Part shown: positions 1 through 21,267 of the stretch, piece after piece
Layout of the letters: the number at the start of each line of letters is the position of its first letter
How positions within the stretch are numbered: position 1 is the first letter of the stretch
Origin: a virus
Virus record (IMG/VR): IMGVR_UViG_3300020205_000254
Coordinates: 1-22,030 of that record
Direction: 5' to 3' (one strand)
Length of the DNA: 22,030 nucleotides
Notes under the pieces: generated by a model
What the model was told of the DNA's origin: nothing
Database searches by the model: none
Seen by the model: only the letters and a program-made list of their open reading frames with translations
Made by a program: the position numbers and the translations under genes

Positions 1-801
1 ATTATTGTTGGTTTTCCGTTTGATGCACAACTTATTGATCAAATTAAAACATTTGCCAAGGACAGTCACGGAACAATGACATGGGATCGTAACAACAAAT
101 TATGGACAGCGGCATTGACGGAGTACAACCTAAGTTGGTTAGAGACTTGGGCAACGTTGAATCAATTTGAAATTGATTGTACTATAGTTGATATAATGAT
201 GCAAATTAAAGCAGTTGAGCAAACTGAATATAACATAGAATTGTATATTGATAATGATACACTTGATATACATAATTGTCCCAACACTCTTAAAGAGTAT
301 ATTGATTCTACGCAGGGAGGATTTGTGTTAGATAATATATTACGTTTAGTAGATATAAGTTCGACTCTAGGGTATACCGTTGCTGGTAATATACGAGAAG
401 TGATTATTAAAGAATATGGAGCCAGATTTTATCATTTGTTAACACATCGAGAAATTAAAATTAATCCCGGCACGTTATTGACTGGTAAAGATTTTGACAG
501 CGTACTCGATTATGCCGAAACAATGGGACGGTGGCCTATTGTGGTATATGAACCTGACCTAAGTAACCGTATGCTGACAAAGTTGACTCAACGATATGGT
601 GCTGAAAATCAGAGTAAATACATACATATAATTCGTCCTATACGCAATCTAGAACACATTCCAATATTGATTAGTAGTGCTGGTATGGTATTTGGAGGAG
701 ACAAACAATTGATGCTACAACGTGCCGAAAAGATTGTATATTGTGTTGAAGATGTTTATAATAAGAAATCACCAGGACGAGTAAAATTAATTGCGAGCTA
801 A
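1..801 (+). CDS. HARP-like domain protein, 5'-truncated by window edge
   Basis: The frame is open from base 1, so the true start lies left of the window; at least 266 residues are present. The first ~50 visible residues (IIVGFPFDAQLI..., then WDRNNKLW and a LTEYN motif) resemble the HARP domain that sits beside SF2 annealing helicases such as SMARCAL1: a hydrophobic strand, F-x-[FY]-D, then W-D-x-x-N-K-x-W and an L-x-x-Y-N turn. The remainder is alpha/beta (RWPIVVYEPDL, HIPILISSAGMVFGGD) with no Walker motif. The gene overlaps uvsW by 11 bp, so the two are probably translationally coupled and may act together in replication-fork remodelling. The HARP assignment is by eye; the C-terminal part is not recognised. 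Confidence 0.6.
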   Translation: MIVGFPFDAQLIDQIKTFAKDSHGTMTWDRNNKLWTAALTEYNLSWLETWATLNQFEIDCTIVDIMMQIKAVEQTEYNIELYIDNDTLDIHNCPNTLKEYIDSTQGGFVLDNILRLVDISSTLGYTVAGNIREVIIKEYGARFYHLLTHREIKINPGTLLTGKDFDSVLDYAETMGRWPIVVYEPDLSNRMLTKLTQRYGAENQSKYIHIIRPIRNLEHIPILISSAGMVFGGDKQLMLQRAEKIVYCVEDVYNKKSPGRVKLIAS

Positions 802-2248
802 ACTAATAATCCGAGATGAAGTAAATGTCAAGATAGAAGGTCTTGATCTATCCACACGTAAAAAACTTGTAGACAAATTCAAATTTGAAATCCCGGGTGC
901 AAGATATCAACCTAGCGTTAGACTAGGTCGGTGGGATGGCAAGGTTGCATTTTTTCAATTGAGCGGTAGTAGCTATATTAACTTACTACCAGAAATATTA
1001 CCCATATTAGAAGATCAAGGATATGATGTTGATATTGAAGACGCAAGAACTTATTCAACCAATTTTGAATTTGATCAAGTAGCCGAAGATAGTTTTGCTG
1101 ATACAGTATGGCCCAAAAGCCATCCACGTGCTGGTGAACCAATCATGTTACGGGATTATCAAGTTGAGATACTTAATTGCTTCTTATCTAATCCACAAAG
1201 CGTACAGGAAATTGCAACTGGTGCTGGCAAAACTATTATGACTGCGGCATTGAGTAAAAGTGTTGAACCATATGGACGTAGTATTATTATTGTGCCCAAC
1301 AAAAGTCTAGTAACACAAACAGAAGAAGATTACATTAACTTAGGATTGGATGTTGGTGTTTACTTTGGAGACCGTAAGGAGTTTGGTAAAACACATACTA
1401 TATGTACTTGGCAAAGTTTAAACATATTGTTGAAGAACACCAAGAACTATGAAGCAGAAGTTACTATTGGCGACTTTATTGAGGGTGTGGTTTGTGTTAT
1501 GGTAGATGAAGTGCATATGGCCAAAGCCGACGCACTTAAAACATTGTTAACTGGGGTATTTGCTCATGTGCCTATTCGTTGGGGACTAACTGGTACTATA
1601 CCTAAAGAAAAATACGAGCACGTTAGTATATTTTGTAGCCTTGGCAACGTAGTAGGAAAACTAAGTGCCAGCGAACTACAAGAAGCTGGACATCTAGCCA
1701 ATTGTCATGTGAATGTAGTACAGTTAATAGACCATGTTGAGTACTCAAACTATCAAACAGAACTTAAATACTTAACAGAAACACAAGGCAGGATTGATTA
1801 TCTTGCTAATTTAATACAAACGGTTAATGAAACAGGCAATACATTGGTATTAGTAGATCGTATTGCCACAGGAAAATTATTAGCTGAGCGTCTAGGTGAT
1901 CGAGCTGTATTTGTGTCGGGCTCAACCAAAGGCGCCGCACGAAAGGAAGAATATGATGAGTTTGCCATCTCTGATGATAAGATTGCTATTGCTACCTATG
2001 GCATTGCTGCTGTTGGCCTTAATATACCTAGGATATTTAATCTTGTGTTGCTTGAACCGGGTAAATCCTTTGTCCGTGTTATCCAGTCGATCGGTAGGGG
2101 TATACGGAAGGCGGAGGACAAAGACCATGTACAAATCTGGGACATAACCAGTACTTGTAAATTTGCAAAACGACATTTAACTAAACGTAAACAATTTTAC
2201 AAAGAAGCCAACTATCCATTCACAGTAGAAAAAGCAGAATGGCAATGA
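791..2248 (+). CDS. uvsW: UvsW-type ATP-dependent DNA helicase
   Basis: Superfamily 2 helicase, 485 aa, close to the ~500 aa of T4 UvsW, which unwinds and anneals branched DNA and supports recombination-dependent replication and origin R-loop removal. Visible motifs: RDYQ Q-like motif (121-124), Walker A ATGAGKT (142-148), DEVH motif II (239-242), GLTGT motif III (275-279) and QSIGRGIR motif VI (432-439). The ~110 residues before the Q motif correspond to the UvsW N-terminal domain. The start is TTG at 791, overlapping the upstream gene by 11 bp; the next in-frame Met falls at the Q motif and would delete the N-domain. The stop overlaps the next gene. All helicase motifs are intact. Confidence 0.95.
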   Translation: MRAKLIIRDEVNVKIEGLDLSTRKKLVDKFKFEIPGARYQPSVRLGRWDGKVAFFQLSGSSYINLLPEILPILEDQGYDVDIEDARTYSTNFEFDQVAEDSFADTVWPKSHPRAGEPIMLRDYQVEILNCFLSNPQSVQEIATGAGKTIMTAALSKSVEPYGRSIIIVPNKSLVTQTEEDYINLGLDVGVYFGDRKEFGKTHTICTWQSLNILLKNTKNYEAEVTIGDFIEGVVCVMVDEVHMAKADALKTLLTGVFAHVPIRWGLTGTIPKEKYEHVSIFCSLGNVVGKLSASELQEAGHLANCHVNVVQLIDHVEYSNYQTELKYLTETQGRIDYLANLIQTVNETGNTLVLVDRIATGKLLAERLGDRAVFVSGSTKGAARKEEYDEFAISDDKIAIATYGIAAVGLNIPRIFNLVLLEPGKSFVRVIQSIGRGIRKAEDKDHVQIWDITSTCKFAKRHLTKRKQFYKEANYPFTVEKAEWQ

Positions 2249-2853
2249 AGATATATGTATGTGGCGACAGTTTTATGAGTCGTGATCCTGATCACCCCGG
2301 AGAACATTTCAGTGAATTAATGTCTTCTAAATTTGATATAGTAAATCTAGCACAAGGTGGCGTTGGAAATATTGATATTTGTTTTCAAATCAAATCGGCC
2401 ATTGACAATCGAGCAGAATATGTTATAATAGGTAAAACAGACTCAGGAAGAACTGAAATGTTATATCCAATAGGGCAGGCAATCACAGGTATTATCAGTA
2501 TAGAGCATTTTAGGGCAGGCCCCGACCAAAGATTTTTGTCAAGGACTTTATCTACATTGATGGGCGAAAATCAAGACATAACACATAATTTAACAAAAGA
2601 ACAACAAAAAGCAGCTCAACTTTATTTTAAATACATGTTTGATATTACGCTAAAATGGAATATAGATTTTTGGGCTATAGGATATTGGTTAATGAAATTA
2701 AGAGAAAACAATATTAAATATTTTGTTATACCAGACTTTTTTTGTATATATGATTATGCTGTACAGTATCCGCACTCACCAAGATTGTTTCACACTGATT
2801 TAGCAACACAACAACAAGCAGCAGAACTATTAACTAAAGAAATAACACCATGA
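2239..2853 (+). CDS. SGNH/GDSL hydrolase-like protein
   Basis: 204 aa. The N-terminus has the SGNH block I signature CGDSF after a hydrophobic strand, with the candidate nucleophile Ser11, and a block II-like NLAQGGVGN segment near residue 37. SGNH enzymes are esterases or lipases acting on acyl or acetyl groups, often on glycans. The C-terminal DxxH dyad is not obvious: the end reads FHTDLATQQQAAELL, so the protein may be degenerate or use another geometry. Two ATGs are possible, 2239 and 2245; the second forms an ATGA overlap with the uvsW stop and is about equally likely. A sampled row has about 23% GC (14 of 60), lower than uvsW. The substrate is unknown. Confidence 0.65.
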   Translation: MAMKIYVCGDSFMSRDPDHPGEHFSELMSSKFDIVNLAQGGVGNIDICFQIKSAIDNRAEYVIIGKTDSGRTEMLYPIGQAITGIISIEHFRAGPDQRFLSRTLSTLMGENQDITHNLTKEQQKAAQLYFKYMFDITLKWNIDFWAIGYWLMKLRENNIKYFVIPDFFCIYDYAVQYPHSPRLFHTDLATQQQAAELLTKEITP

Positions 2854-3350
2854 GAATATTAACACTGGATAATACAGCCTACGAAATGAATGACATTCCG
2901 GAGGAAATAGATGAAGTTAGATTTTGTGTATTAGATAACAGTGATCCCAAGGACCCTGATTATTTTTATATACCGTTAATATTTTTAGAGTCATTTAATA
3001 GTCCAGCACTGGTATTGCGTATTGGACCAAATACTATTCGTATGCCAGTGGATTGGCAAATACTAATTGGTGAGCCAGACTTTGGTGATCTAGAAGTAGT
3101 ACCGTTAACTAGTATTAACGATCGTGGATTTAGTGTGTTTACATTTAATCCGTTAAAAAGTTTTAGACCAGAGTTTCATCCAGTGGAGATTGTTGACATT
3201 TATCAAGATGTTAAATGGTATTTTCCAAAATTAAAACCTGGACAAATGTTAGCGGTCCCTTTAACAGAAGGACATAATCCAATGTGTGCATACTTTATTA
3301 AAGACATCAGTAGACAAAGCGAAGTAGTGGATTATAGCAAAATTTGGTAA
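2850..3350 (+). CDS. Conserved hypothetical T4-like phage protein
   Basis: 166 aa, beginning MRILTLDN, with an ATGA overlap at the previous stop. It looks like an all-beta-rich globular protein with alternating hydrophobic strands (DEVRFCVLDN, PDYFYIPLIFLESF, PALVLRIG, TIRMPVDWQILIG) and a conserved-looking end (FIKDISRQSEVVDY). No catalytic motif, signal peptide or membrane segment is visible. The sequence style resembles uncharacterised proteins of marine T4-like phages, but I cannot name a function. Its place in the uvsW/clamp-loader operon suggests expression with replication genes. Confidence 0.75.
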   Translation: MRILTLDNTAYEMNDIPEEIDEVRFCVLDNSDPKDPDYFYIPLIFLESFNSPALVLRIGPNTIRMPVDWQILIGEPDFGDLEVVPLTSINDRGFSVFTFNPLKSFRPEFHPVEIVDIYQDVKWYFPKLKPGQMLAVPLTEGHNPMCAYFIKDISRQSEVVDYSKIW

Positions 3351-3364
3351 ACAATGGAGTTGAC

Positions 3365-3853
3365 ATGAAAATTGGATTTAATTGTAGTAGTTTTGATCTG
3401 TTACATGCTGGACATGTAACAATGTTAAAAATGGAAAAACAACTTTGTGACTATCTTATTGTGGCGTTACAAACTGATCCTACTATAGATCGTCCGGGCA
3501 TAAAAAATAAACCTATACAAAGTACCTACGAGCGTTATATACAATTACAAGCATGTCGGTATGTAGATGAAATTCTAGTATACGATACCGAATACGATCT
3601 TATGCAGTTGTTACAAACACAGACTATACATATACGCTTTTTAAGTGATGAATACATAGATCGAGACTTTACTGGACGACAATATTGCATAGATAATGAT
3701 ATAGAATTGCATTACCATAAACGTAGTCACAATTATAGCAGTAGCGAATTGCGATCTAGAACTGCACGACTAGAAGCAGAGAAGGCACTGGACCAGCCAA
3801 CAGCACTACCACAATATAGTCCAGAATTAATCAATAATCCGCTTAAATATTGA
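3365..3853 (+). CDS. Cytidylyltransferase-like (HxGH nucleotidylyltransferase) protein
   Basis: 162 aa. It starts KIGFNCSSFDLLHAGHVTML: HAGH (14-17) is the HxGH nucleotide-binding motif of the nucleotidylyltransferase family that includes glycerol-3-phosphate cytidylyltransferase (TagD/TarD). The second signature, normally R-x-x-[GE]-[IV]-S-[ST]-[ST], appears as NYSSSELRSR (123-132). These enzymes join CMP or AMP to a phospho-substrate to give an activated CDP- or ADP-ligand plus pyrophosphate. The start is ATG 3365, with GGAG at 3356-3359 five bases upstream; an in-frame TTG at 3344 lacks such a site. The C-terminal ~25 residues (QPTALPQYSPELINN) are Pro/Asn-rich and outside the fold. It lies between two SGNH-like genes. 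The substrate is unknown. Confidence 0.8.
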   Translation: MKIGFNCSSFDLLHAGHVTMLKMEKQLCDYLIVALQTDPTIDRPGIKNKPIQSTYERYIQLQACRYVDEILVYDTEYDLMQLLQTQTIHIRFLSDEYIDRDFTGRQYCIDNDIELHYHKRSHNYSSSELRSRTARLEAEKALDQPTALPQYSPELINNPLKY

Positions 3854-3855
3854 TT

Positions 3856-4131
3856 ATGGGACATCTTAATGTAGGCGCAACTTATATCTATGAACGAAAT
3901 GGTGAAGAAATTTACGCCAGAGAAGCTGGCCAAACAAATCGTGTACTAATTGGATATCAATATGAAGGTAAGACTGATCCAAGAACTGATGACGGTCGCC
4001 CATTGCATGAACACATGCAGGAAGAACAACTTTGGAATAAAATTCGTCGTACTGCTCGAACAAATCCTGTTTTACAATCAGAACTAGAACGTGTTATAAT
4101 GTTGTATAACTTAATTAACAGTGAAAAGTAA
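3856..4131 (+). CDS. Small conserved hypothetical phage protein
   Basis: 91 aa from ATG 3856; an in-frame TTG at 3850 is possible but adds only two residues. The N-terminal half carries a beta-type YIYERNGEEIYAREAG segment, with charged residues before the loop DPRTDDGRPL. The C-terminal half is helical (EEQLWNKIRRTARTNPVLQSELERVIMLYNLI). No cysteine pairs, membrane segment or enzyme motif are present. It overlaps the next gene by 11 bp. The type is familiar from marine T4-like genomes but has no function I can state; a small DNA- or replisome-binding role is speculation from context only. Confidence 0.7.
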   Translation: MGHLNVGATYIYERNGEEIYAREAGQTNRVLIGYQYEGKTDPRTDDGRPLHEHMQEEQLWNKIRRTARTNPVLQSELERVIMLYNLINSEK

Positions 4132-4834
4132 AATATTATTAACATTTGGTGACAGTTGGCCGGCCGGAGCAAAGTTGGATGATAAGTCTTTGGCCTTTCC
4201 TAAGTTACTTGCTAATAAATTAGAAATAGAGTTGATGGATCTAAGTGAACCGGCAACTAGCATAGATCATGCAGTAATGGCTTTTTTGAATTTTTTAGAA
4301 AATACATATAAAGTTGACGCAACTTATACCGCATTATTTTGTTTAACAGATGTTAGTAGAGCAATGGCCTGGCGTAATGGTGATAATGAAATTCCTCCTA
4401 GGGATCAACTATGGGCACCAAATTGCTTTACACAAGAATTACAAATTAATAATATAGATCCTATGTCACAAACGTATTTTAAAAACATACATTCCACTAG
4501 ATTAGAAAATTATACCTATCATAAGAATATTGTACTTTTAAAATTATTATGTGAGAAATATAGCATTCGAGACTTTTACGTTCATAATTTTTATGATCCT
4601 AATTTTGAATTTAAAATAGTTAATAAAGATAGAATATATCCACATACACTAACGCAACTACTTGATACTAAAATGTACAAAGAATATATTCCAACTCTAA
4701 TTGCGCCAATAGAACAGGATAAATTAAAACGACCCATATGGGAAGAGCCTTTTGTGTTTATGAATCCAGATGGGCATCCAACTGAATTAGGGCACCAACG
4801 TATTGCAGAGGAATTGGCACAATGGATAAATTAA
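4121..4834 (+). CDS. SGNH/GDSL hydrolase-like protein
   Basis: 237 aa from GTG 4121, overlapping the previous stop by 11 bp. Block I is LLTFGDSWPAGAKL with predicted nucleophile Ser12; the C-terminal catalytic block is NPDGHPTELGHQRIAEEL with Asp217 and His219. Unlike the SGNH-like protein at 2239, both ends of the active site are visible, so activity is plausible. GDSW-type SGNH proteins with a D-x-HP ending recur in marine phages; I know of no established substrate. The gene is very AT-rich (hand counts of 10 and 14 G+C per 60 bases in two rows). It overlaps the gp62-like gene by 13 bp. A glycan or lipid deacylase is the likeliest chemistry. Confidence 0.75.
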   Translation: MKSKILLTFGDSWPAGAKLDDKSLAFPKLLANKLEIELMDLSEPATSIDHAVMAFLNFLENTYKVDATYTALFCLTDVSRAMAWRNGDNEIPPRDQLWAPNCFTQELQINNIDPMSQTYFKNIHSTRLENYTYHKNIVLLKLLCEKYSIRDFYVHNFYDPNFEFKIVNKDRIYPHTLTQLLDTKMYKEYIPTLIAPIEQDKLKRPIWEEPFVFMNPDGHPTELGHQRIAEELAQWIN

Positions 4835-5289
4835 ATATTGCAAATGAAATGGCTCGATTTGATCTTAAGGATCGAGACTTTTATGACGATCTTTCTGAAG
4901 AAGAACAAAAGAAGTTTAGTCCTTATTTGATGATACGGTGGGGAGCCGCAGTGGAAGGTCCGGCAGAATTGCAAGCCTATTACTTAATGAGCTGTAACGA
5001 AAACTTAAATAAAAATTTCTTTGACATTAACACTACACAGCATAAAAAGTTGCAATGGTTATTGGCAACAACAGTAAGTCCAGGTATGGGCAAACAGTAT
5101 CACAAATGGTTAGCGGCAAAAAAGAAGGATACTGCTAATAACAAATCAGAAAAAATACTACGTGAACTGTATCCTAATGCCGCTCACGATGAAATTCAAT
5201 TGATGGCAGATTTAAACGACAAAGCAGAACTTCGAGAATTGGCAAAGAAACATGGATGGGATGATCGTAGAATCAAAGAGTACCTATAA
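4822..5289 (+). CDS. 62: Clamp-loader small subunit, gp62-like
   Basis: 155 aa. In T4, gp62 is the single non-ATPase subunit that joins four gp44 subunits to load the gp45 sliding clamp. The sequence fits the short marine-phage version: an acidic N-terminus, SPYLMIRWGAAV (34-45), then HKKLQWLLATTVSPGMGKQYHKW, where the L-x-W-L-L ... K-x-x-x-K-W layout matches the core helix and basic motif of gp62 relatives. The C-terminal third is helical (AELRELAKKHGWDDRRIKEYL). The gene for the gp44 partner is not in this window. The identification rests on pattern and length, not on alignment. It overlaps the next gene by 38 bp. Confidence 0.65.
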   Translation: MDKLNIANEMARFDLKDRDFYDDLSEEEQKKFSPYLMIRWGAAVEGPAELQAYYLMSCNENLNKNFFDINTTQHKKLQWLLATTVSPGMGKQYHKWLAAKKKDTANNKSEKILRELYPNAAHDEIQLMADLNDKAELRELAKKHGWDDRRIKEYL

Positions 5290-5962
5290 ATGTCGCTATT
5301 GTGAGAAATCCTTTAGCAAGGAGTCGACCTTGGTGGTGCATCTCTGCGAACCCAAGCGTCGGTGGCAACAGGAAAAAGAAGTAGGAGTACAATTAGGACT
5401 TAAAGCATATTTAAGATTTTATGAAATAACACAGGGATCAGCAAAGTTAAAAAACTATGAAGACTTTGTTAAGAGTTCTTATTACAATGCCTTTATTAAG
5501 TTTGGTAGATACAGTCAAGATATACGCTGTATTAACTATACTAATTATCTAGAGTGGCTGTTACGAAACAACAAGAAAATAGATAATTGGTGTAGCGACA
5601 GACTTTATGAAGAATGGTTACCAGGATACTTACAAAAAGAAGCAGTACAAGATGCATTAGAACGAGCACTAAAGGAAATGCAAGATTATGCAGAAGCTAA
5701 TACAGATCTTAAAAACGGTTTTACAGACTATTTTAGGTTTGGTCAACCTAATAGGATTCTCTTTCACATTACTAGCGGGAGGATTAGTCCTTGGGTTGTT
5801 TATAATTCCGAGAGTGGTGTGGCTTTTTTGGATGGACTGTCGGAAGAACAAATTCAAATAGTGTTGCCCTGGATTGATCCTGAGCATTGGCAACGTAAAT
5901 TTACGGACTATATGGCCGATACTGAATGGGTCAAGGATATATTAAAAAAGGCTGGACTATGA
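5252..5962 (+). CDS. C2HC zinc-finger protein of T4-like phage type
   Basis: 236 aa from ATG 5252; ATG 5261 is an alternative. A C2HC finger lies at residues 14-32: Cys14-x2-Cys17, aromatic Phe21, then His30-x-Cys32, within YKCRYCEKSFSKESTLVVH, followed by basic EPKRRWQQ. A helical, aromatic-rich middle (LKAYLRFYEITQG, YTNYLEWLL) and the helix EAVQDALERALKEMQDYAEANTDL come next. The end (FLDGLSEEQIQIVLPWIDPEHWQRKFTDYM) is also helical. A finger plus basic patch suggests nucleic-acid binding. Its 38-bp overlap with the gp62-like gene implies coupled translation. The role is unknown; a replication or transcription accessory factor fits the context. Confidence 0.75.
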   Translation: MDGMIVESKSTYKCRYCEKSFSKESTLVVHLCEPKRRWQQEKEVGVQLGLKAYLRFYEITQGSAKLKNYEDFVKSSYYNAFIKFGRYSQDIRCINYTNYLEWLLRNNKKIDNWCSDRLYEEWLPGYLQKEAVQDALERALKEMQDYAEANTDLKNGFTDYFRFGQPNRILFHITSGRISPWVVYNSESGVAFLDGLSEEQIQIVLPWIDPEHWQRKFTDYMADTEWVKDILKKAGL

Positions 5963-6522
5963 AATTTAAAGGCGACATTGACATAGACTTCCCCAATAGA
6001 GATCAAGCATTGACCCTATTACAACATCATCCCGCAGGTATTGTACGTGATGGTAGATTAATTAAACACAATACTGGAGTTTATGTAACTGATATTCCAA
6101 CAGATCCATTAACTGGTACATCCAGCATTGACTATCAGCAGGCCGAAGACCTTGGATATATGAAGTTAGATTTTTTAAATGTATCGTTATATACGCAGAT
6201 AAAGAGTGAACAACATCTGACTGAATTACTTGCAAAAGAACCTGAATGGGATCGGCTATACGATCCTGACTTTTGTAGTCAGCTTATACATATTGGAAAT
6301 CATTATGACTTACTAATTAAATGTCCAGAAGCAGTTAACAGTATACCACGAATGGCCATGTTCCTGGCTCTAATACGTCCTGGTAAACGACATTTGGTTG
6401 GAAAACCTTGGTCAGAAATTGCTCGTACTGTATGGGAATCTACTGACGAAGGATATATATTTAAGAAAAGCCACGCAGTGGCCTATGCACATCTTGTAGT
6501 AGTTAATATGAATTTATTGTAG
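5959..6522 (+). CDS. Miniature DnaE-like (PolIII alpha palm/fingers) protein
   Basis: 187 aa from ATG 5959, forming ATGA with the upstream stop. Segments match bacterial replicative polymerase DnaE in order: GDIDIDFPNRD (5-15) resembles the palm PDFDVDF block, placing Asp8 and Asp10 as the two catalytic aspartates; HNTGVYVTD (37-45) resembles HxCGVVI; LGYMKLDFLNVSLYTQI (65-81) resembles the KFDFLGL block, with Asp71 as the third aspartate; FLALIRPGK (125-133) resembles ALFRPGP; and GYIFKKSHAVAYAH (155-168) resembles GYGFNKSHSAAYA of the fingers. DnaE itself exceeds 1,000 aa: the PHP, thumb, clamp-binding and OB parts are absent, as is most of the sequence between blocks. Whether it polymerises is unknown. 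A structural relic or replisome regulator is the alternative. Confidence 0.7.
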   Translation: MKFKGDIDIDFPNRDQALTLLQHHPAGIVRDGRLIKHNTGVYVTDIPTDPLTGTSSIDYQQAEDLGYMKLDFLNVSLYTQIKSEQHLTELLAKEPEWDRLYDPDFCSQLIHIGNHYDLLIKCPEAVNSIPRMAMFLALIRPGKRHLVGKPWSEIARTVWESTDEGYIFKKSHAVAYAHLVVVNMNLL

Positions 6523-7242
6523 TTTTTGGTAAACAAAATACAAACGATCATTGGCATCACGCTTGAATGTTAGTAATTTTAAATTATAAATGTCGGCAAA
6601 TTCGTTAACTATTTCAAACGTCCAAGGGAATATTTCCACATATGGTCCTGTCTTGTGTGCTATGCCTGGATTAGCCCTTAGATAAAACTTTCCAGCTGGT
6701 GCCAACAAATTGACACAGTGAGCAAATCTTGCTTCAACTTCGTCTCGACTGTTAAAGTTAATAGATCCTAGTGCAATAATATGATCGTGTTTATGCTTTA
6801 CACGGTATTCTAAAACATCAACTTCGTAGTCGGCGCAGTTGTTGTAAGGATCAATTCCAATCAGGTTAGGAATACGACCTTTAAAAGGATGATATCCGCA
6901 ACCTACATCAAGTACCGCTTGCGGATTTTGTTTAGTTATTTCTTCAGCTAGGGCCCAACCAGTATAATCATAGTCGCCGGTCCTGGGCTTCCAAATTTCA
7001 CTAAAGAATCTCAGGATGTAACGCTCGCTGAGATCATTGACTATATCTTTTAAAGAGCCTATATAATCACAAGGCAAACTGAGTTCAGTTTCGACTGCAT
7101 CTTTAAATTTACGATAGCGAGCTGGAGTCCAGGGCAATTGATCTACTAGTGTGTTTATATTAATATCAAGATCTTGATATTTGGGCAAGGCAAATGCCAT
7201 AGTTAAATTTTCTTGGATTAGATTAAAAATTTTAGTATTCAT
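6514..7242 (-). CDS. Class I SAM-dependent methyltransferase
   Basis: 242 aa on the minus strand, overlapping the end of the DnaE-like gene tail to tail by 9 bp. Motif I is VLDVGCGYHPFK (110-121), the SAM-binding glycine loop, and LIGIDPYNN (127-135) supplies the acidic residue after beta2. HDHIIALGSINF (142-153) stands where motif IV is expected but lacks an NPPY/DPPY signature, which argues against a DNA N6-adenine enzyme. The N-terminal ~100 residues are helical and specific to this protein. Substrate is unknown; a small molecule or a protein is likeliest. Upstream, GAGAAA before the start is a weak ribosome site, and no clear promoter is seen. Confidence 0.8.
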   Translation of the reverse strand: MNTKIFNLIQENLTMAFALPKYQDLDININTLVDQLPWTPARYRKFKDAVETELSLPCDYIGSLKDIVNDLSERYILRFFSEIWKPRTGDYDYTGWALAEEITKQNPQAVLDVGCGYHPFKGRIPNLIGIDPYNNCADYEVDVLEYRVKHKHDHIIALGSINFNSRDEVEARFAHCVNLLAPAGKFYLRANPGIAHKTGPYVEIFPWTFEIVNEFADIYNLKLLTFKRDANDRLYFVYQKLQ

Positions 7243-7340: not shown

Positions 7341-8294
7341 ATGAAAAAATTACTAGCCATATTCCTATTAGTGCCAATTCTAGCATTTGCTTGGGAACCT
7401 CGACGACCAGTTACAGTTGTATTTCCAAATGGTCCCGGTGCTGGAAATGAAATCAGCTTTAGATTTGTAGCCAGCATAGTAGAAAAGAAAACTGGTGCCA
7501 CGTTTGTAAGCGAATACAAACCTGGTGCAGATGGCAATATCGCCATGAATCATTTTGCCACTGTGCCTGCTGATGGGCATACTATTGCTGTACCGGCTTG
7601 CCAGAGCAACTGGGTGACTGGTGACATCTGGTACAGTAACATGATTCGATATGATGCTCAGGACTTTGAGCCCGTGGCCAATATTGCTCGTAGTCCACTA
7701 GCATTTTGGGCTCATCCCAGCAGTCCTATAAACACTCCACAAGAACTAGCAGAACTAATACACTCTCAAAAACGACCGGTCAATATTGCCATTGGTGGTG
7801 GCGGGCATCGACTGGCAATACAATATCTTGTTGATGCCTTACGGGTACCAGCCAATACGGTGTCAACTCCCATGTACAAAGGTCCAGCACAGGCCCTGCT
7901 AGATGTCCTAGGCGGTCATGTGGAATTTGGTGTGACTCCTGTCACAGTTGGATGGCCGCATGTGCAAGCTGGAAAACTAAAATTAATCGGTATCGCCAAT
8001 GAACAACCGTTAAAAGGACTAGAACGTGCACCATTGATGCGTACAGTTGCTCCAGGCTTGTCCATACATGGCTGTTGGAATATCGTATTACCCAAAGGCA
8101 CACCTGCTGATATACAGGCCTGGTATCGTGATCATTTTGTGCCGGCTATTAGAAGTGCCGAAGCCGGAGAAAAGTTTGCAGAAAACATGATGTTTATCAC
8201 TCCTGCAGAACACACACCTGCGGGTGTTAGGGCCAGCATGGCTCGGTTACGAGAGGTGTGGCAACCGGTTGCTAGAAAGATAAAACCTGAATGA
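7341..8294 (+). CDS. Bug/TctC-family periplasmic substrate-binding protein
   Basis: 317 aa with a clear Sec signal peptide (MKKLLAIFLLVPILAFA, cut near residue 17). It has the family's N-terminal pattern: PVTVVFPNGPGAGNEISFR matches the [IV]-x-[FY]-x-x-G-x-G-x-x-x-x-x-x-R motif, then VSEYKPGADGNIA and VPADGHTIAV. Its length equals the usual ~320 aa. Bug proteins bind carboxylates for TctAB-type transporters and are greatly expanded in Burkholderiales. No transporter membrane subunits are encoded here, so it would have to serve the host's. It is flanked by phage genes on the opposite strand. A sampled row has 47% GC (28 of 60), higher than nearby phage genes, which suggests recent host origin. 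The ligand cannot be told from sequence. Confidence 0.9.
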   Translation: MKKLLAIFLLVPILAFAWEPRRPVTVVFPNGPGAGNEISFRFVASIVEKKTGATFVSEYKPGADGNIAMNHFATVPADGHTIAVPACQSNWVTGDIWYSNMIRYDAQDFEPVANIARSPLAFWAHPSSPINTPQELAELIHSQKRPVNIAIGGGGHRLAIQYLVDALRVPANTVSTPMYKGPAQALLDVLGGHVEFGVTPVTVGWPHVQAGKLKLIGIANEQPLKGLERAPLMRTVAPGLSIHGCWNIVLPKGTPADIQAWYRDHFVPAIRSAEAGEKFAENMMFITPAEHTPAGVRASMARLREVWQPVARKIKPE

Positions 8295-8304
8295 AATACA
8301 GTAT

Positions 8305-8682
8305 CTATTGATTAATTTTACGAATTAAAGTAATTGATTTTCTTTTGCTACGTTTAGTGCTCATTTCTTTAAGACTTACGTAAGGACCCATTTTAATTTC
8401 TACGTCCTTACTATTCATAGTGCGTAGACATGTTTTAAACCCTACCCAGTCTGATTTTAAAAATACATTAATTGGTATTAATCGATTACTTTCCCACCAC
8501 CAGGTATCCCCTAGTTGTAGAAAAATACGTTTGACTTCAGCGTCTTTAAGAAGCCCAAAGTCGTAAATTGTTGTAATAATTTCGTCTGAATTTTGTATAA
8601 TACCAATGTAATCATTACCGCCATATGTTATATAGCTAATGAACGGGTATTGTGCGAGTAGTTGCTTGTAGTGGTCTTCCAC
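8305..8682 (-). CDS. Conserved hypothetical phage protein
   Basis: 125 aa on the minus strand from GTG 8682. Visible features are a beta-type YITYGGNDYIGIIQNSDEIITTIYDF stretch (18-43, quoted as motif positions YGG 20-22 and IIQN 28-31), a striking LGDTWWWESNRLIPINVFL core with three tandem tryptophans, and a basic tail (STKRSKRKSITLIRK) that could touch nucleic acid. It resembles small proteins of unknown function in marine T4-like phages. Its 3' end faces that of the Bug gene with a 10-bp gap. Function is not recognised. Confidence 0.7.
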   Translation of the reverse strand: MEDHYKQLLAQYPFISYITYGGNDYIGIIQNSDEIITTIYDFGLLKDAEVKRIFLQLGDTWWWESNRLIPINVFLKSDWVGFKTCLRTMNSKDVEIKMGPYVSLKEMSTKRSKRKSITLIRKINQ

Positions 8683-10071: not shown

Positions 10072-11106
10072 ATGTTGAACTCTATTCAAGACGCAGTTAA
10101 ATTATTATTGCCTGCAAAACGGAAAACCAATTCTACGTCTGGTTGGATTAGTTTTAATGCACCTTGTTGCCACCATAATGGTGAATCTGCAGACACACGT
10201 GGCCGTGGCGGATTTAATTTTGACCCCGATGGCTCTGTTGGATATCATTGTTTTAATTGTAATTTTATAACTGGATTCCAGCCTGGACGACACCTAACTT
10301 ATAAATTTCGTAAGTTATTGTCCTGGTTAGGTGCAGATGATAACACAGTTAAACGGTTAGTTATAGATGCTATTCGTATACGAGAATTAGTATCACCCGA
10401 ACAACGTATAGAAGCAGTAGTACAAGAAGCGATTGTATTTAAACCCCGACCGTTGCCTGAAGAAGCACAGACATTTCATACACTAAGTACATTTTACACA
10501 TTAAACAATGATCAAGATGTACCACCAGAGTTTCATACCGCAGTAATATATTCAGCCACTAGAGGAATAGATCTTACTCGGTACGATTTATATTGGACGC
10601 CAGAACGACAGTACAATTTAAATAGACGACTTATTATTCCGTTTACTTGGCATAATGAAATTATTGGGTATACAGCTAGAGCAATAGATGATGGGGTAAA
10701 ACCAAAGTACCATAACAGTCATGAGCCAGGATATGTGTTTAATGTAGATAAACAATTATCCACAAGTCAATTTGTTATTGTGGTCGAAGGGCCATTTGAT
10801 GCTATGAGCATCAATGGTGTGGCTATATTAGGTAATGAGTGCAGTGAACAACAAGCAGACATTATTGACAGTTTAGGCCGTGAAGTTATTGTAGTACCAG
10901 ATGCAGATCGTGCTGGAACAAAATTAGTAGATGCCGCATTAGAATACGGCTGGTCGGTTAGTTATCCAATTTGGCATCAGGATTGTAAAGATGCAGCATC
11001 TGCTGTTACCAAATACGGAAAGTTATTTGTGTTAAAAAGTATATTGGCCGGTAAGGAAACTGGCAGACTTAAAATTGAGTTATTAAAGAAGAAACTATAT
11101 AATTAA
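10072..11106 (+). CDS. DNA primase (CHC2 zinc finger + TOPRIM, gp61-like role)
   Basis: 344 aa, about T4 gp61 length (342). The N-terminal zinc-binding site is formed by Cys32/33, His34/35, Cys60 and Cys63 (PCCHHNGES ... YHCFNC). The TOPRIM catalytic domain shows VIVVEGPFDAMSI with Glu239 and Asp243, and IVVPDADRAG with Asp277 and Asp279, the metal-binding DxD. It makes RNA primers for lagging-strand synthesis with the gp41-type helicase encoded at 12946. The start at 10072 keeps the zinc finger whole; a sigma70 promoter ends 7 nt upstream and no ribosome site fits between, so translation of a leaderless mRNA is expected. The 3' end carries the promoter of the next gene. Confidence 0.9.
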   Translation: MLNSIQDAVKLLLPAKRKTNSTSGWISFNAPCCHHNGESADTRGRGGFNFDPDGSVGYHCFNCNFITGFQPGRHLTYKFRKLLSWLGADDNTVKRLVIDAIRIRELVSPEQRIEAVVQEAIVFKPRPLPEEAQTFHTLSTFYTLNNDQDVPPEFHTAVIYSATRGIDLTRYDLYWTPERQYNLNRRLIIPFTWHNEIIGYTARAIDDGVKPKYHNSHEPGYVFNVDKQLSTSQFVIVVEGPFDAMSINGVAILGNECSEQQADIIDSLGREVIVVPDADRAGTKLVDAALEYGWSVSYPIWHQDCKDAASAVTKYGKLFVLKSILAGKETGRLKIELLKKKLYN

Positions 11107-11113
11107 ACTATGA
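11074..11113 (+). repeat. 40-bp promoter repeat, copy 1
   Basis: This 40-bp segment matches 12910-12949 at 33 of 40 positions by hand alignment without gaps. The last 16 bases, including the shared TATAATTAAACTATGA, are identical. Copy 1 spans the end of the primase gene and the start codon of the radical SAM gene. Confidence 0.85.
11075..11103 (+). promoter_or_regulatory. Sigma70-type promoter, leaderless, for the radical SAM-SDR pair
   Basis: TTGAGT (11075-11080), 17-nt spacer, consensus TATAAT (11098-11103). Six bases later comes the ATG at 11110, exactly where transcription should begin. Confidence 0.75.
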
Positions 11114-12249
11114 ATCCTAAAAAGAAGTTTTTTTTATTTAAACAATCCAAACATTTTTGTGCCGTACCATGGAACCATTTAAAAATTCACACATCGGGAG
11201 AAGTAACCACATGTGTGAATGGGCTATACCAGTTAGGAAATGTACATGATAATTCATTCAATGAAATTTTATCTAATCCAATATTACATACAATTAAAAA
11301 TAATGTAGTACAGGATTTGCCAGACATTAATTGTAAAAAATGTCAAACATTAGAAAACACAGAAGATTATTCATACAAATTTTTAAGAGATTTGTATAAT
11401 CCCATGTTTATAAAATCTACAGCGGACTATGATAGTAATACAGATTTTGTTCTAAACGGGGTAGATTTACATTGGGGTAGTACTTGCAATTTAAAATGTA
11501 TTACCTGTTGGGGAGAACAAAGCAGCTCAATTGCACAAGAATTAGGTGAACCAATTAGAACAGTATCTGCTGAGGCAGCAAATAGCACAATAGATTTTAT
11601 AGTCAAGAATCAAATCACACTTAAAGAAATATATATGAGTGGCGGAGAGCCTACATTAATAAAACATAATCTTAATTTATTAAAACAACTACGCAAAGAT
11701 TTAGACTTTACCATTCGAATAAACACCAATATGACTTTTATGGATAATAATCCAGTCATTAATGAATTAAAGAAATTTCCAAAAGTGTTATTTACGATCA
11801 GCGCCGACGCATTGACTAATAGATTTAACTATATTAGACGTGGCGCTGATTGGAAAAATTTTATATATAACTTAGAACAACTAAAAAAATTACATTTTGA
11901 CTGGAGAGTTAATTCAGTGTTTTTTGTAGGCACAGCATTGCATTTAGCTAATACTCAAGAATTTTTTATGAATAATTTTGAAATTAACGATTTCACAATT
12001 AATCAAGTTGGTATGGGGCACGATAGTATTAGATGCCGCAATCTTCCAATCAATGTAAAAGAGTTGGTAACGGATAAATTACAAACACATAGAGAAAAAT
12101 ATAAACAAAATATAAATTTATATGGACAATTAACAAATTGTATGAACGAAGTTACGCAACCCACTGAAGAATCGTATATAGCATTCTTTGATGACATTGA
12201 TAAGCGTGCCGGCACAAACTGGCGGCACATATTTACAGAACTCATATGA
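11110..12249 (+). CDS. Radical SAM enzyme with N-terminal twitch/SPASM-like cysteines
   Basis: 379 aa. The radical SAM cluster site is STCNLKCITC: Cys126-x3-Cys130-x2-Cys133, followed by the SAM-binding GGEP (178-181). Before it, Cys17 (FCAVPWNHL), Cys35 (EVTTCVNG) and Cys75/Cys78 (INCKKC) form a SPASM/twitch-like auxiliary cysteine set at the N-terminus, as in the phage and marine-bacterial twitch subfamily. Such enzymes use a 4Fe-4S cluster and S-adenosylmethionine to start radical chemistry. The substrate is unknown; a peptide, sugar or nucleotide is possible. The start is an apparent leaderless ATG. Sampled rows are 22% and 32% GC. The SDR gene follows with an ATGA overlap and may act on the product. 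Confidence 0.85.
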   Translation: MNPKKKFFLFKQSKHFCAVPWNHLKIHTSGEVTTCVNGLYQLGNVHDNSFNEILSNPILHTIKNNVVQDLPDINCKKCQTLENTEDYSYKFLRDLYNPMFIKSTADYDSNTDFVLNGVDLHWGSTCNLKCITCWGEQSSSIAQELGEPIRTVSAEAANSTIDFIVKNQITLKEIYMSGGEPTLIKHNLNLLKQLRKDLDFTIRINTNMTFMDNNPVINELKKFPKVLFTISADALTNRFNYIRRGADWKNFIYNLEQLKKLHFDWRVNSVFFVGTALHLANTQEFFMNNFEINDFTINQVGMGHDSIRCRNLPINVKELVTDKLQTHREKYKQNINLYGQLTNCMNEVTQPTEESYIAFFDDIDKRAGTNWRHIFTELI

Positions 12250-12914: not shown

Positions 12915-12949
12915 GATATTATTAAATATACTGTATAATTAAACTATGA
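12910..12949 (+). repeat. 40-bp promoter repeat, copy 2
   Basis: Second copy of the promoter segment at 11074-11113 (33 of 40 identical). The two copies bracket the radical SAM-SDR pair, and this copy drives the helicase. Confidence 0.85.
12911..12939 (+). promoter_or_regulatory. Sigma70-type promoter of the helicase gene, leaderless
   Basis: TTGAGA (12911-12916), 17-nt spacer, consensus TATAAT (12934-12939). The ATG at 12946 lies at the expected +1. Confidence 0.75.
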
Positions 12950-14385
12950 CAAAAGAATATTCAACCGATTTACAAAGATTGTTTTTAGAAATGATGTTAA
13001 CCGACGCACAAAGTTATGTGCGAGTACAAAACATTTATAATCCTGAAAACTTTGATCGCAGTCTTAGAGCTGTGGCAGAGTTTGTGAAAACACACAGTGA
13101 AGATCATAAGACCCTTCCTACATTTGAACAGATCAAAGCCACAACTGGAGTAGATCTTAAAGCAGTTCCAGACCTTGTTGATGGCCACTATAATTGGTTT
13201 ATGCAGGAATTTGAAGGTTTTAGTCGACGTATGGAATTAGAACGTGCTATTTTAAAAGCGGCAGACTTATTAGAAAAAGGTGACTACGATCCTGTAGAAA
13301 AATTGATTAAAGATGCAGTACAGATTAGTTTAACTAAAGACATGGGCACTGATTACTTTGCTGATCCGAGAGCACGTATTGACAAATACTTTAACAGTGG
13401 TGGGCAAGTAAGCACAGGTTGGCCCACTATGGATAAGATACTGTATGGTGGTATGAGCCGCGGCGAACTCAATATCTTTGCTGGCGGATCGGGCTCGGGT
13501 AAGAGTCTTGTTATGATGAACATTGCTCTTAGTTGGTTACAAGCAGGACTCAGTGGGGTGTATGTTACATTGGAACTCAGTGAAGAATTATGTAGTTTGC
13601 GTACAGATGCTATGCTTACAGGTATGGGAACCAAGGACATTCGCAAAGATGTTGACACTACCGAACTTAAAGTTCGTATGGTATCTAAAAAAGCTGGACA
13701 GTATAGAGTAAAAGCATTTCCAGCACAGAGCACAATTAATGATATTAGAGCATACTTAAAAGAAGTGCAAATACAAACAGGGATCAAAGTTGATTTTGTT
13801 ATGGTTGATTACTTAGACTTATTAATGCCAGTAAGTGTTAAAGTTAATCCCAATGACCAGTTTATTAAAGACAAATACGTAGCAGAAGAACTGCGTAACA
13901 TAGCACAAGAATTAAATGTGTTATTGGTTACAGCAAGTCAGTTAAATCGTAGTGCTGTAGAAGAAATTGAGTTTGATCATAGTCATATTGCTGGTGGTAT
14001 TAGTAAGATTAATACTGCGGATAACGTATTTGGTATTTTTACAAGTCGTGCTATGAAAGAACGTGGGCGGTATCAAATACAATGTATGAAATCTCGTAGT
14101 AGTACTGGAGTTGGTATGAAGATTGATTTAGAATACAATATAGAAACTATGCGTATTACTGATCCAGGGCCCGAAGGGCAAGAAGGGTATTTACAAGCAG
14201 GGGGTCCGCCCAAAGTTACTAGTATTATGAATCAAATTAAAGCCAGTACAACAGTAAATCAATTTGATGTAAAAGCCAAAGATGGGTTCAATCTAGAAAG
14301 AGATGCTGGGCCACCTCCAGGGAGTAGTCTTGAAAGCAATAAGTTAAAACAGATGCTTGCTGGATTAAAAAGTAAAACCGATTAA
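12946..14385 (+). CDS. 41: Replicative DNA helicase, gp41/DnaB-type
   Basis: 479 aa, close to T4 gp41 (475). The N-terminal ~150 residues are helical and correspond to the primase-contacting domain. The RecA-like domain begins at STGWPTMDKILYGGMSRGELNIF. Walker A is GSGSGKS (181-187); the glutamate of ATP hydrolysis is probably in VTLELSEE (207-214); Walker B is FVMVDYLDLL (284-293, Asp288); the sensor motif is TASQLNR (329-335). The Pro/Gly-rich C-terminal tail (GPPPGSSLESNK) may bind partners. It unwinds DNA 5'-3' as a hexamer ahead of the fork and works with the primase at 10072. Transcription starts from its own promoter, with an apparently leaderless ATG. Its end overlaps the minus-strand gene by 21 bp. 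Confidence 0.95.
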   Translation: MTKEYSTDLQRLFLEMMLTDAQSYVRVQNIYNPENFDRSLRAVAEFVKTHSEDHKTLPTFEQIKATTGVDLKAVPDLVDGHYNWFMQEFEGFSRRMELERAILKAADLLEKGDYDPVEKLIKDAVQISLTKDMGTDYFADPRARIDKYFNSGGQVSTGWPTMDKILYGGMSRGELNIFAGGSGSGKSLVMMNIALSWLQAGLSGVYVTLELSEELCSLRTDAMLTGMGTKDIRKDVDTTELKVRMVSKKAGQYRVKAFPAQSTINDIRAYLKEVQIQTGIKVDFVMVDYLDLLMPVSVKVNPNDQFIKDKYVAEELRNIAQELNVLLVTASQLNRSAVEEIEFDHSHIAGGISKINTADNVFGIFTSRAMKERGRYQIQCMKSRSSTGVGMKIDLEYNIETMRITDPGPEGQEGYLQAGGPPKVTSIMNQIKASTTVNQFDVKAKDGFNLERDAGPPPGSSLESNKLKQMLAGLKSKTD

Positions 14386-15438
14386 CTCACAAAATTCTGG
14401 CAGGTAGTTAACCATACAAATACCTTTTACTTCATCTTGTTTTTTGATTATTTTTAAAAATCTAGTAAAATCGTAATTGTCTTTGTCAGTGTGAGTGCCT
14501 ATAAAAAATTCTAAATCCTGTGATCGGCCACGTTTGCGAAATATTTCTTCTTTAACTGATTTGGGTAAAGCCCCGGGCCTAAAGTATGTGGGGTTAATAA
14601 CGGGATTATAATGATAATTTAACTTTTGTTCTTTAAACCAGCTAATAGTCTCATGATGATAAAGCACATTCATATTACTAGTAGTACTACTAACACTAAC
14701 ATTATCTGTAATAGTTCTAAAAAATTCTAAGTTTTCTAATAGAGTATCCCATGACAATGGATATCTTAGGTATTCAAATATTGGGCCCACTCCGTCAATA
14801 CTGACATTAAAATTTATATTTTTAAATTTTTTAAGTAGCTCTTTGTTATTATCACTTATATTAACTGATCCATTGGTTGTGACTGCAATAAAACATTTAG
14901 TGTTATTATTTTTAATTAATTGTTCAAGAATATAAAAATTTAACTTTTCATATAAAGGTTCGCCACCAACAAAATTTAACATGACTAACTCTTTAAAATT
15001 AAGATTTTCGTGAATGTCAGTCTTAGTCATGGATTTTATGGGTAGTGCAGTTAGATTCATTTTCTTTTCTAATGGTCCCCATGCACTTGATGGTCCAGAA
15101 TTACAAGTAACACAAGTAGAATTACAAGTGTTACTTGTAACATTTTTTACCATTATGGTTTTATATTTTCCTTGTATAACATCCTCTTCGATATATCTAA
15201 GGTCTTTATCCCAGTAAAAATCTAAAGCAGAGTTTTTAAGTTTACGATCACTAATTAGCCCAGCATCTTCTAGGTTCCAACACGCTGAGCAAAACGGTGA
15301 TCTTTCCTGATTCAGGATGCTACTTTTTATGGATTCTATGTTATAATTCTTAGGTAGTAAACAACAATGAGTTCCATATCGACGGTCAGTAGAATATTCG
15401 TACCCAAAAAACGGTAGAACACAAAAATAATTATTCAT
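14365..15438 (-). CDS. Second radical SAM enzyme with twitch/SPASM-like cysteines
   Basis: 357 aa on the minus strand. Core: NTCNSTCVTC gives Cys105-x3-Cys109-x2-Cys112, then NFVGGEPLYE with GGEP at 158-161. N-terminal cysteines at 6, 25/26, 50 and 53 (FCVLPFFG, THCCLLP, FCSACW) form the auxiliary set. It shares architecture, but little sequence, with the radical SAM protein at 11110, so it is not a recent duplicate. The inner part has the radical SAM strands VTTNGS and NVSIDGVG. Two sampled rows are 23% and 30% GC. The gene lies alone and opposite to its neighbours; upstream TATAAT and TATAAG sequences exist without good -35 boxes. The substrate is unknown; peptide or sugar modification is possible. 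Confidence 0.85.
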   Translation of the reverse strand: MNNYFCVLPFFGYEYSTDRRYGTHCCLLPKNYNIESIKSSILNQERSPFCSACWNLEDAGLISDRKLKNSALDFYWDKDLRYIEEDVIQGKYKTIMVKNVTSNTCNSTCVTCNSGPSSAWGPLEKKMNLTALPIKSMTKTDIHENLNFKELVMLNFVGGEPLYEKLNFYILEQLIKNNNTKCFIAVTTNGSVNISDNNKELLKKFKNINFNVSIDGVGPIFEYLRYPLSWDTLLENLEFFRTITDNVSVSSTTSNMNVLYHHETISWFKEQKLNYHYNPVINPTYFRPGALPKSVKEEIFRKRGRSQDLEFFIGTHTDKDNYDFTRFLKIIKKQDEVKGICMVNYLPEFCELIGFTF

Positions 15439-18920: not shown

Positions 18921-18944
18921 TAGTTTAATAACTATAAACAAACG

Positions 18945-18969
18945 AGGCACTCTTTGTAGTGCCTTTTTT
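18945..18969 (+). terminator. Rho-independent terminator
   Basis: GGCACT (18946-18951) pairs with AGTGCC (18958-18963) around a 6-nt loop, followed by six T residues (18964-18969). It ends the transcript of the gene at 18489. Confidence 0.9.
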
Positions 18970-18976
18970 GTGGCCG

Positions 18977-18984
18977 CTAAATAC
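18977..18984 (+). promoter_or_regulatory. Candidate late promoter (CTAAATAC), near-leaderless
   Basis: CTAAATAC lies 7 nt before the ATG at 18992 and 7 nt after the terminator T-run. The same octamer recurs at 20523. Some promoter is needed here unless read-through occurs. Confidence 0.45.
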
Positions 18985-18991
18985 TAATACT

Positions 18992-21266: not shown

Positions 21267-21267
21267 T

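What the first reader, a model, noticed from the sequence alone, without database searches (positions are those of the whole stretch)
5959..6522. A 187-residue stand-alone DnaE-like palm/fingers protein
The three putative catalytic aspartates (Asp8, Asp10, Asp71), the HxxGV segment, an RPG element and the GYxFxKSH fingers motif of bacterial PolIII alpha appear in the right order, but everything else of the >1,000-residue enzyme is missing. A polymerase core this small, beside a clamp-loader gene in a phage type that normally uses a gp43 family B polymerase, would be a striking reduction: a primer-extension, translesion or regulatory mini-polymerase, or a fossil. Related short genes may exist in other marine phages under a generic polymerase label; I cannot check that.
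Basis: partly seen in the sequence, partly recalled or inferred. Interest (0 to 1): 0.85.

Follow-up and report, generated by a model that had tools for sequence, protein, structure and literature searches.

The report
Half of a split phage polymerase
This short gene encodes one half of a tiny bacterial-type DNA polymerase that giant phages carry as two separate genes next to their ordinary polymerase; the arrangement was predicted in print in 2021, so this is a new, well-preserved example rather than a discovery, and whether it makes DNA is still untested.

Summary
In detail: 5959-6522 (+) encodes 187 aa matching PHROG 11778 over full length (E 1.6e-59) and DnaE families weakly; an AlphaFold2 model (pLDDT 89.8) aligns end to end with PolC/DnaE. 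The interpretation needs correcting: it is not stand-alone. In related jumbo phages a second short gene supplies the other palm half, with the GRGS nucleotide-binding motif, and ends where this protein begins (E. coli DnaE residue 393 versus 397). Both halves and a family B polymerase were each found in 12 of 12 large related records; no PHP domain was, nor any other DnaE part with the families tried. The residues matching E. coli D401/D403/D555 are D6/D8/D71, not D8/D10/D71, and stand in 77-78 of 78 distinct sequences, so it is no fossil. Iyer et al. 2021 (PMC7824862) already described this split minimal Pol III alpha. The window is a 22-kb fragment in which the partner was not found. Not seen in the text I read: the fitted models, residue-level conservation, and an order in XacN1 and CM1 where both halves lie near the clamp loader. 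Activity and role remain unknown; most likely an accessory polymerase assembled from two chains.

The parts
5959..6522 (+). C-terminal (metal-binding) half of split minimal DNA polymerase III alpha, 187 aa
5974..5988 (+). DIDID motif, residues 6-10; D6/D8/D10 = E. coli DnaE D401/D403/D405
   Evidence: D6 and D8 in 78 of 78, D10 in 77 of 78 distinct sequences, window included
6067..6078 (+). H37-N-T-G40 = E. coli H511..G514
   Evidence: H37 and G40 in 78 of 78; hhalign pairs this stretch with E. coli 510 onward
6163..6171 (+). K69-L-D71 = E. coli K553 and D555 (third catalytic Asp)
   Evidence: 77 of 78 each; the exception L016 lacks both
6376..6387 (+). R140-P-G-K143 element = E. coli R639-P640-G641
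   Evidence: R140, P141, K143 in 78 of 78
6463..6474 (+). K169-K-S-H172 fingers motif = E. coli N757-K-S-H760
   Evidence: H172 in 78 of 78, K169 in 76 of 78
5252..5962 (+). C2H2 zinc-finger-like protein, phrog_11058, conserved neighbour
   Evidence: PHROG 1.9e-60, Pfam zf-C2H2 0.0012, under its cut-off; upstream of the C-half in 80 of 81 loci, within 100 bases in 54 of 81
4822..5289 (+). clamp-loader small subunit-like (T4 gp62-like), phrog_11758
   Evidence: XacN1 homologue hits phrog_225 clamp loader 2.9e-10; upstream in 80 of 81 loci
791..2248 (+). UvsW-type helicase
   Evidence: phrog_16 5.7e-72; upstream in 34 of 35 loci
2850..3350 (+). phrog_11279, unknown function, part of the conserved block
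   Evidence: lies near the N-half in XacN1 and CM1
8305..8682 (-). phrog_11637, small convergent gene of the conserved block
   Evidence: directly downstream of the C-half in Phosso and GAP32
10072..11106 (+). DnaG-type primase
   Evidence: phrog_47 3.8e-41
12946..14385 (+). DnaB/gp41-type replicative helicase
   Evidence: phrog_19 4.4e-71

Best explanation
The gene encodes the C-terminal, metal-binding half of a two-chain minimal DNA polymerase III alpha. Shown by comparison: it holds the second part of the Pol-beta-like palm (DxDxD strand, K-x-D strand) and a stub of fingers; the first part of the palm, with the GRGS nucleotide-binding motif, is a separate gene elsewhere in the genome of its relatives. 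Inferred: the two chains associate without splicing to rebuild one nucleotidyltransferase site, the N-half gripping the incoming nucleotide's phosphates and D6, D8 and D71 of the C-half holding two Mg2+ ions. Inferred: the enzyme is an accessory polymerase at the T4-like fork, working with the family B replicase, clamp loader, primase and helicase, for short synthesis such as gap filling or primer extension, because thumb, most of the fingers, clamp-binding and PHP parts are missing.
For: C-half: PHROG 11778; model pLDDT 89.8 aligns over 182 residues to PolC 3f2c (Z 9.5, rmsd 3.2) and 184 to DnaE 3e0d (Z 9.5, rmsd 3.6); the 13 PolIII entries score Z 6.2-9.5 and the next row 3.1. N-half: model pLDDT 88.4, residues 76-172 align to 16 PolIII entries with Z 7.5-12.2, next row 2.0; Pfam PF07733 above its cut-off in both N-halves scanned. 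The matches abut and do not overlap: E. coli N-half to 393, C-half from 397 or 399; 3e0d to 455, from 458; M. tuberculosis 7pu7 to 413, from 417. N-half, C-half and PolB each in 12 of 12 large records; N-half listed for 59 of the 60 listed C-half phage records. GRGSS in 78 of 78 metagenome N-halves read and in 12 of 13 genomes compared, the other (Atu_ph07) reading GRGSC. Catalytic residues kept; median dN/dS 0.09 on 50 usable pairs of 3003. No PHP domain in 12 of 12; no PolA in 12; no PF07733 hit at E 0.001 or better except at the N-half. Replication neighbourhood conserved. Iyer et al. 2021 had published the same split.
Against: No complex was modelled and no activity is known. Foldseek alone gave the C-half no PDB match at E 0.001 or better (best 3.0e-3). 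A C-half Z of 9.5 is only just above the level the tool calls common. The YQEQ and R709 elements, invariant in the seven DnaE sequences or pieces aligned, have no counterpart in the C-half, so template and dNTP grip may be too weak for a polymerase. One of 78 distinct sequences (L016) has lost K69 and D71. The partner was not seen in the window record, a 22-kb fragment. One C-half record of the two rechecked, PP728206, has no N-half. A DnaQ-like exonuclease is found in only 8 of 12.
Confidence: 0.75

Rival explanations
1. The two chains assemble into a nucleotidyltransferase that is not a templated polymerase: with thumb and main fingers gone it would add or transfer nucleotides without a template, or act on another substrate.
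For: Metal and GS sites are kept while template- and dNTP-gripping parts are lost: D10 to H37 is 27 residues against 106 in E. coli (D405-H511), R140 to G165 is 25 against 116 (R639-G755).
Against: Invariant R140, P141, K143, H172 of the fingers remnant and the clamp-loader, primase and helicase neighbourhood point to fork work.
Confidence: 0.15
2. A catalytically inactive scaffold or regulatory subunit derived from DnaE, held in the replisome for protein contacts only.
For: L016 lacks K69 and D71; heavy reduction.
Against: Metal-binding Asp kept in 77-78 of 78 and GRGSS in 78 of 78 metagenome N-halves; pure scaffolds usually lose such residues.
Confidence: 0.08
3. A stand-alone 187-aa mini-polymerase.
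For: Full catalytic Asp set in one chain.
Against: The GS half of the palm is absent from this chain and encoded separately in 12 of 12 relatives; model residues 1-187 match DnaE only from just before the DxD strand on.
Confidence: 0.01
4. A fossil or decaying fragment of a full DnaE gene.
For: Most of DnaE is missing.
Against: Median dN/dS 0.09, nearly invariant active site, similar length and gene order from rhizobial and enterobacterial jumbo phages to metagenome contigs.
Confidence: 0.01

Closest known systems
Split minimal DNA polymerase III alpha of group 2.2 jumbo phages (Iyer et al. 2021, PMC7824862, section 3.4.1), C-terminal unit; PHROG 11778
   Same: Same motifs and fold class, beside PolB in relatives, partner encoded far away. 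That PHROG 11778 and 11127 are the two units Iyer et al. mean is inferred from their description and the shared phages (Atu_ph07 is in their group 2.2)
   Different: The window's phage is known only from a 22-kb record; its protein lacks the 3 to 15 C-terminal residues that the metagenome relatives have
N-terminal unit, PHROG 11127 (GAP32 247206-247721; in CBB the 172-aa Pol III alpha, CBB_328, called truncated in PMC5259590)
   Same: Other half of the same palm
   Different: Separate gene, near a gp31/GroES-like gene; not found in the window
Bacterial DnaE / PolC (C-family DNA polymerase)
   Same: Pol-beta-like palm with DxD..KxD, H511, R639-P640, H760 equivalents
   Different: No PHP, thumb, YQEQ/R709 fingers, clamp-binding or OB parts in this chain; palm divided over two genes
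Family B replicase (T4 gp43-like)
   Same: Same genomes in 12 of 12 relatives; the presumed main replicase
   Different: Different polymerase family (recalled)

Membership tests
Split minimal Pol III alpha, C-terminal unit (Iyer 2021 / PHROG 11778) | Full-length match to the family | tested here: met
   PHROG 11778 E 1.6e-59, residues 2-187
Split minimal Pol III alpha, C-terminal unit (Iyer 2021 / PHROG 11778) | Partner N-terminal unit in the same genome, at a distance | tested here: inconclusive
   12 of 12 large related records, about 14 to 224 kb from the C-half; not in the 22-kb window, which is a fragment
Split minimal Pol III alpha, C-terminal unit (Iyer 2021 / PHROG 11778) | Accompanied by a family B polymerase | tested here: inconclusive
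   PF00136 in 12 of 12 related records; window record too short
Split minimal Pol III alpha, C-terminal unit (Iyer 2021 / PHROG 11778) | No other Pol III alpha domain in the genome | tested here: inconclusive
   In relatives: PF02811 0 of 12 at E 0.1; PF07733 at E 0.001 only at the N-half; PF17657 at E 0.001 only at the C-half, in 2 of 12; OB and HHH parts not searched separately; window's own genome not held
C-family DNA polymerase (DnaE/PolC) | Catalytic DxD and third Asp in a Pol-beta-like palm | tested here: met
   D6, D8, D71
C-family DNA polymerase (DnaE/PolC) | GRGS nucleotide-binding motif in the same chain | tested here: not met
   Absent from this chain; GRGSS in 78 of 78 metagenome N-halves
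C-family DNA polymerase (DnaE/PolC) | PHP domain, thumb, full fingers, clamp-binding and OB regions | tested here: not met
   Chain is 187 aa with deletions at thumb and fingers; no PHP in 12 relatives
C-family DNA polymerase (DnaE/PolC) | Template-directed DNA synthesis | not testable with these tools
   Needs purified proteins

The most novel reading that the evidence does not exclude
The reconstituted pair is a true second fork enzyme with a palm built in trans from two chains and almost no thumb or fingers, delivered by the phage's clamp loader; XacN1 and CM1 keep an older gene order in which both halves lie near the clamp-loader genes, and the halves later drifted up to about 220 kb apart while staying obligate partners. 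It could be the smallest C-family catalytic unit and a working model of an early Pol III.
Probability: 0.25. Interest if true: 0.8.

Novelty: new member of a known kind. Interest (0 to 1): 0.5.

Why it matters
A polymerase palm cut between its nucleotide-binding loop and its metal-binding strand, yet conserved across jumbo phages of many hosts, is an unusual test of how little of a replicase is needed. Two proteins of about 200 residues or fewer are easy to make and mix, so the question can be settled at the bench. It also bears on whether cellular Pol III grew from a smaller multi-chain ancestor, as Iyer et al. proposed, or whether phages cut it down.

Tried and rejected
Stand-alone enzyme: dropped once phrog_405 hit a second short ORF that proved to be the N-half. 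Fossil: dropped on conservation and dN/dS (the highest of the 50 usable pairs was 0.52). Full DnaE elsewhere in the genome: no PF07733 hit at E 0.001 or better other than the N-half in 12 records; two weaker PF07733 hits (E 0.008, 0.06) and one weak PF17657 hit outside the C-half (GAP32, E 0.016) were taken as chance. In one search one of 6 records, the 108-kb contig G003, gave no hit at all, not even at its C-half, so it says nothing. Intein or trans-splicing: neither half carries extra sequence at the junction, which mostly ends ..EFLK and starts (M)KF..DIDID; not tested with an intein model. PolA: 0 of 12. Bacterial homologues: 5 hits in genome contigs, all in metagenome-assembled bins, taken as misbinned phage (inference). 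Proofreading partner: DnaQ-like exonuclease in 8 of 12, so not strictly linked. Tree-similarity of the halves: r 0.87 over 78 pairs from 13 genomes, but no control gene was run, so it is weak. A scan with the Vibrio phage C-half found no relatives. PDB search by sequence with the C-half profile found only unrelated chains. BFVD fold search: best matches are DnaE-like viral polymerases, best E 3.6e-4; no protein of this size was among the polymerase rows of the 50 shown of 188. Active-site distances could not be measured: model coordinates were not in the box. N-half residues 1-75 lay outside nearly all aligned ranges and were not tested alone.

Dropped rows: L169 and L178 (partial) from the N-half count; L188 (start not resolved), L191 (partial) and the later L213 and L214 from the C-half set; 20 duplicates among 98 C-halves. 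D10 is counted missing in one row of 78; that row was not printed, and L189, whose PDLDIDI start can be aligned two ways, is my guess. The gp31 label of the XacN1 and CM1 genes rests on a profile made here (E 1.2e-9 and 2.6e-11); PHROGs gave the XacN1 one no match.

Papers: searches; of PMC7824862 section 3.4.1 was read and other passages; PMC5259590, PMC6102473, PMC6892783, PMC13282480 and PMC12926913 as passages only. No experimental test of the split enzyme turned up in those listings and passages, which cover open-licence papers only. The catalytic roles of E. coli D401, D403 and D555, and the organism of 3e0d (Taq) and 5lew, are recalled, not from a call.

Full report
What is there. It matches PHROG 11778, labelled only 'DNA polymerase', over its whole length (E 1.6e-59), and the DnaE PHROGs 405 and 11165 over residues 22-88. 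tblastn finds it in 63 phage records, all with at least 80% of the query covered. Of the 60 listed, 57 are records of 284-490 kb and three are short (86-110 kb); they run from Sinorhizobium phage Phosso (51% identity) and Agrobacterium phage Atu_ph07 through PA5oct, Vibrio 2.275.O, 121Q, GAP32, CBB and RaK2 to XacN1 and CM1. In IMG/VR 449 stretches encode a relative, of which the best 80 were kept. The window is itself a virus record of 22,030 bases.

The partner. Searching six related records with the DnaE PHROG 405 profile hit a second short open frame (174-199 aa open) in 5 of 6, over profile positions 360-436, upstream of the part covered by our gene. In GAP32 this is 172 aa and matches phrog_11127 (1.1e-87) and Pfam PF07733 above its cut-off. 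It reads GRGSS in 78 of 78 metagenome relatives (80 loci fetched, 2 partial ones left out) and in 12 of 13 genomes compared, Atu_ph07 reading GRGSC. In most rows it ends ..EFLK or EFLR, where bacterial DnaE goes on to PDFDVDF; our protein starts MKFKGDIDIDF. An AlphaFold2 model of the N-half (pLDDT 88.4) aligns over residues 76-172 to 16 PolIII entries (Z 7.5 to 12.2), with the next row at Z 2.0; residues 1-75 were hardly tested. The C-half model (pLDDT 89.8) aligns over 172 to 184 of 187 residues to 13 PolIII entries (Z 6.2 to 9.5), next row Z 3.1. The two stretches abut: E. coli to 393, then from 397 or 399; 3e0d to 455, then 458; M. tuberculosis 7pu7 to 413, then 417. Foldseek alone was weaker for the C-half (best E 3.0e-3, though its first 12 rows are DNA polymerase entries of this family). 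Profile-profile comparison with seven DnaE sequences or pieces gives probability 95% for each half.

Residues. Against E. coli DnaE (numbers) D6/D8/D10 are D401/D403/D405, H37 is H511, K69 is K553, D71 is D555, R140 is R639 and H172 is H760. The stretch 36-88 is paired so by hhalign; the rest is my alignment by motif. Thus the catalytic set is D6, D8, D71, not D8, D10, D71. Of 98 C-halves, window included, 78 are distinct: D6, D8, H37, G40, W97, R140, P141, K143, H172 in all 78; D10, K69 and D71 in 77. One metagenome sequence, L016, lacks K69 and D71. Compared with E. coli, about 79 residues are missing at the thumb and about 91 in the fingers, including YQEQ and R709, which are invariant in the seven DnaE sequences or pieces. 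Crude dN/dS has median 0.09 on the 50 pairs of 3003 with usable dS. This is a maintained gene.

Genomes. In 12 large records (10 named phages, 2 IMG/VR contigs) the N-half, the C-half and a family B polymerase are each found in 12 of 12, PolA in 0, PHP in 0, PF07733 at E 0.001 or better only at the N-half, and a DnaQ-like exonuclease in 8. Comparing the 60 records listed for each half, 59 are shared. The odd ones: PP728206 has a C-half and no N-half; it is titled an unverified complete genome but is 109.5 kb, against 346 kb for RaK2 of the same genus, so it may be incomplete. OP752703 has both. The halves lie about 14 kb (CM1) to 224 kb (Phosso) apart.

Neighbourhood. In the window and in Phosso and GAP32 the C-half sits in a block UvsW - phrog_11279 - clamp-loader small subunit - zinc finger - C-half - phrog_11637 - primase - helicase, with some other genes between. 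Of 85 C-half loci examined, 81 hold more than 1.5 kb upstream, and 80 of these have the clamp-loader-like and zinc-finger genes upstream, the zinc finger within 100 bases in 54; UvsW in 34 of 35 with more than 6 kb upstream; primase in 23 and helicase in 20 of 32 with more than 7.5 kb downstream. The clamp-loader identity rests on the XacN1 homologue matching phrog_225 (2.9e-10) and following a gp44-type gene after one intervening gene. The N-half has a gp31/GroES-like gene within about 2 kb in 78 of 78 loci and a phrog_14844 gene in 77. In XacN1 and CM1, the most diverged of the ten named phages aligned (37% and 34% identity), one same-strand block holds UvsW - phrog_11279 - N-half - gp31-like - clamp loader small subunit - zinc finger, with the C-half some 10-11 kb further on; in XacN1 a gp44-type gene lies in the same block. 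This brings together the two neighbourhoods that the other phages examined keep apart and suggests the halves were once closer. The parts of Iyer et al. that I read do not mention it.

Mechanism. Shown by comparison: the two chains cover complementary, non-overlapping parts of one PolIII palm, and the residues expected to bind metal (here) and nucleotide phosphates (partner) are invariant or nearly so. Inferred: they assemble and catalyse nucleotidyl transfer. Inferred with less confidence: template-directed, short-range synthesis next to the family B replicase. The missing thumb and fingers leave an untemplated transferase open.

Known or new. [quoted passage not shown] The CBB paper had noted a 172-aa truncated Pol III alpha (CBB_328; passage), which fits the N-half found in CBB. 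So the kind is known and this is a new member. My searches turned up no experimental test; they cover open-licence papers only. The interest score reflects a striking but published, still untested prediction that two small proteins could settle.

Noticed in passing
L211 (XacN1) 3174-3740 C-half, 18637-19185 N-half; L212 (CM1) 6057-6695 and 20759-21310: Both halves lie on one strand about 14-15 kb apart; the N-half sits between phrog_11279 and the clamp-loader small subunit, a different order from the other phages examined.
   Followed up: yes
L016 1996-2580: A C-half relative that has lost K69 and D71 (MTLALLH) but keeps an open frame of 195 residues; an inactive variant, decay or a sequencing error on a 4.5-kb contig.
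   Followed up: no
window 7341-8294 +: TctC-type tripartite tricarboxylate transporter binding protein (PF03401 2.1e-24), a possible host-derived metabolic gene.
   Followed up: no
window 11110-12249 + and 14365-15438 -: Two radical-SAM proteins (PF04055), the first with an N-terminal SPASM match, around the replicative helicase gene.
   Followed up: no
window 3344-3853 +: Cytidylyltransferase-like protein (PF01467 3.6e-13).
   Followed up: no
window 2239-2853 + and 4121-4834 +: Two proteins with GDS-type starts resembling SGNH hydrolases by eye; no Pfam, PHROG or NCBIfam match at the limits used.
   Followed up: no
window 6514-7242 -: Convergent gene overlapping the end of the C-half by 9 bases, methyltransferase-like by eye with no family match; the window C-half is 3 to 15 residues shorter at its C-terminus than its metagenome relatives.
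   Followed up: no
window 17350-18411 +: DUF6267 protein (PF19782 2.3e-27).
   Followed up: no
[quoted passage not shown] it was not tested alone. Possibly a phage-specific contact domain.
   Followed up: no
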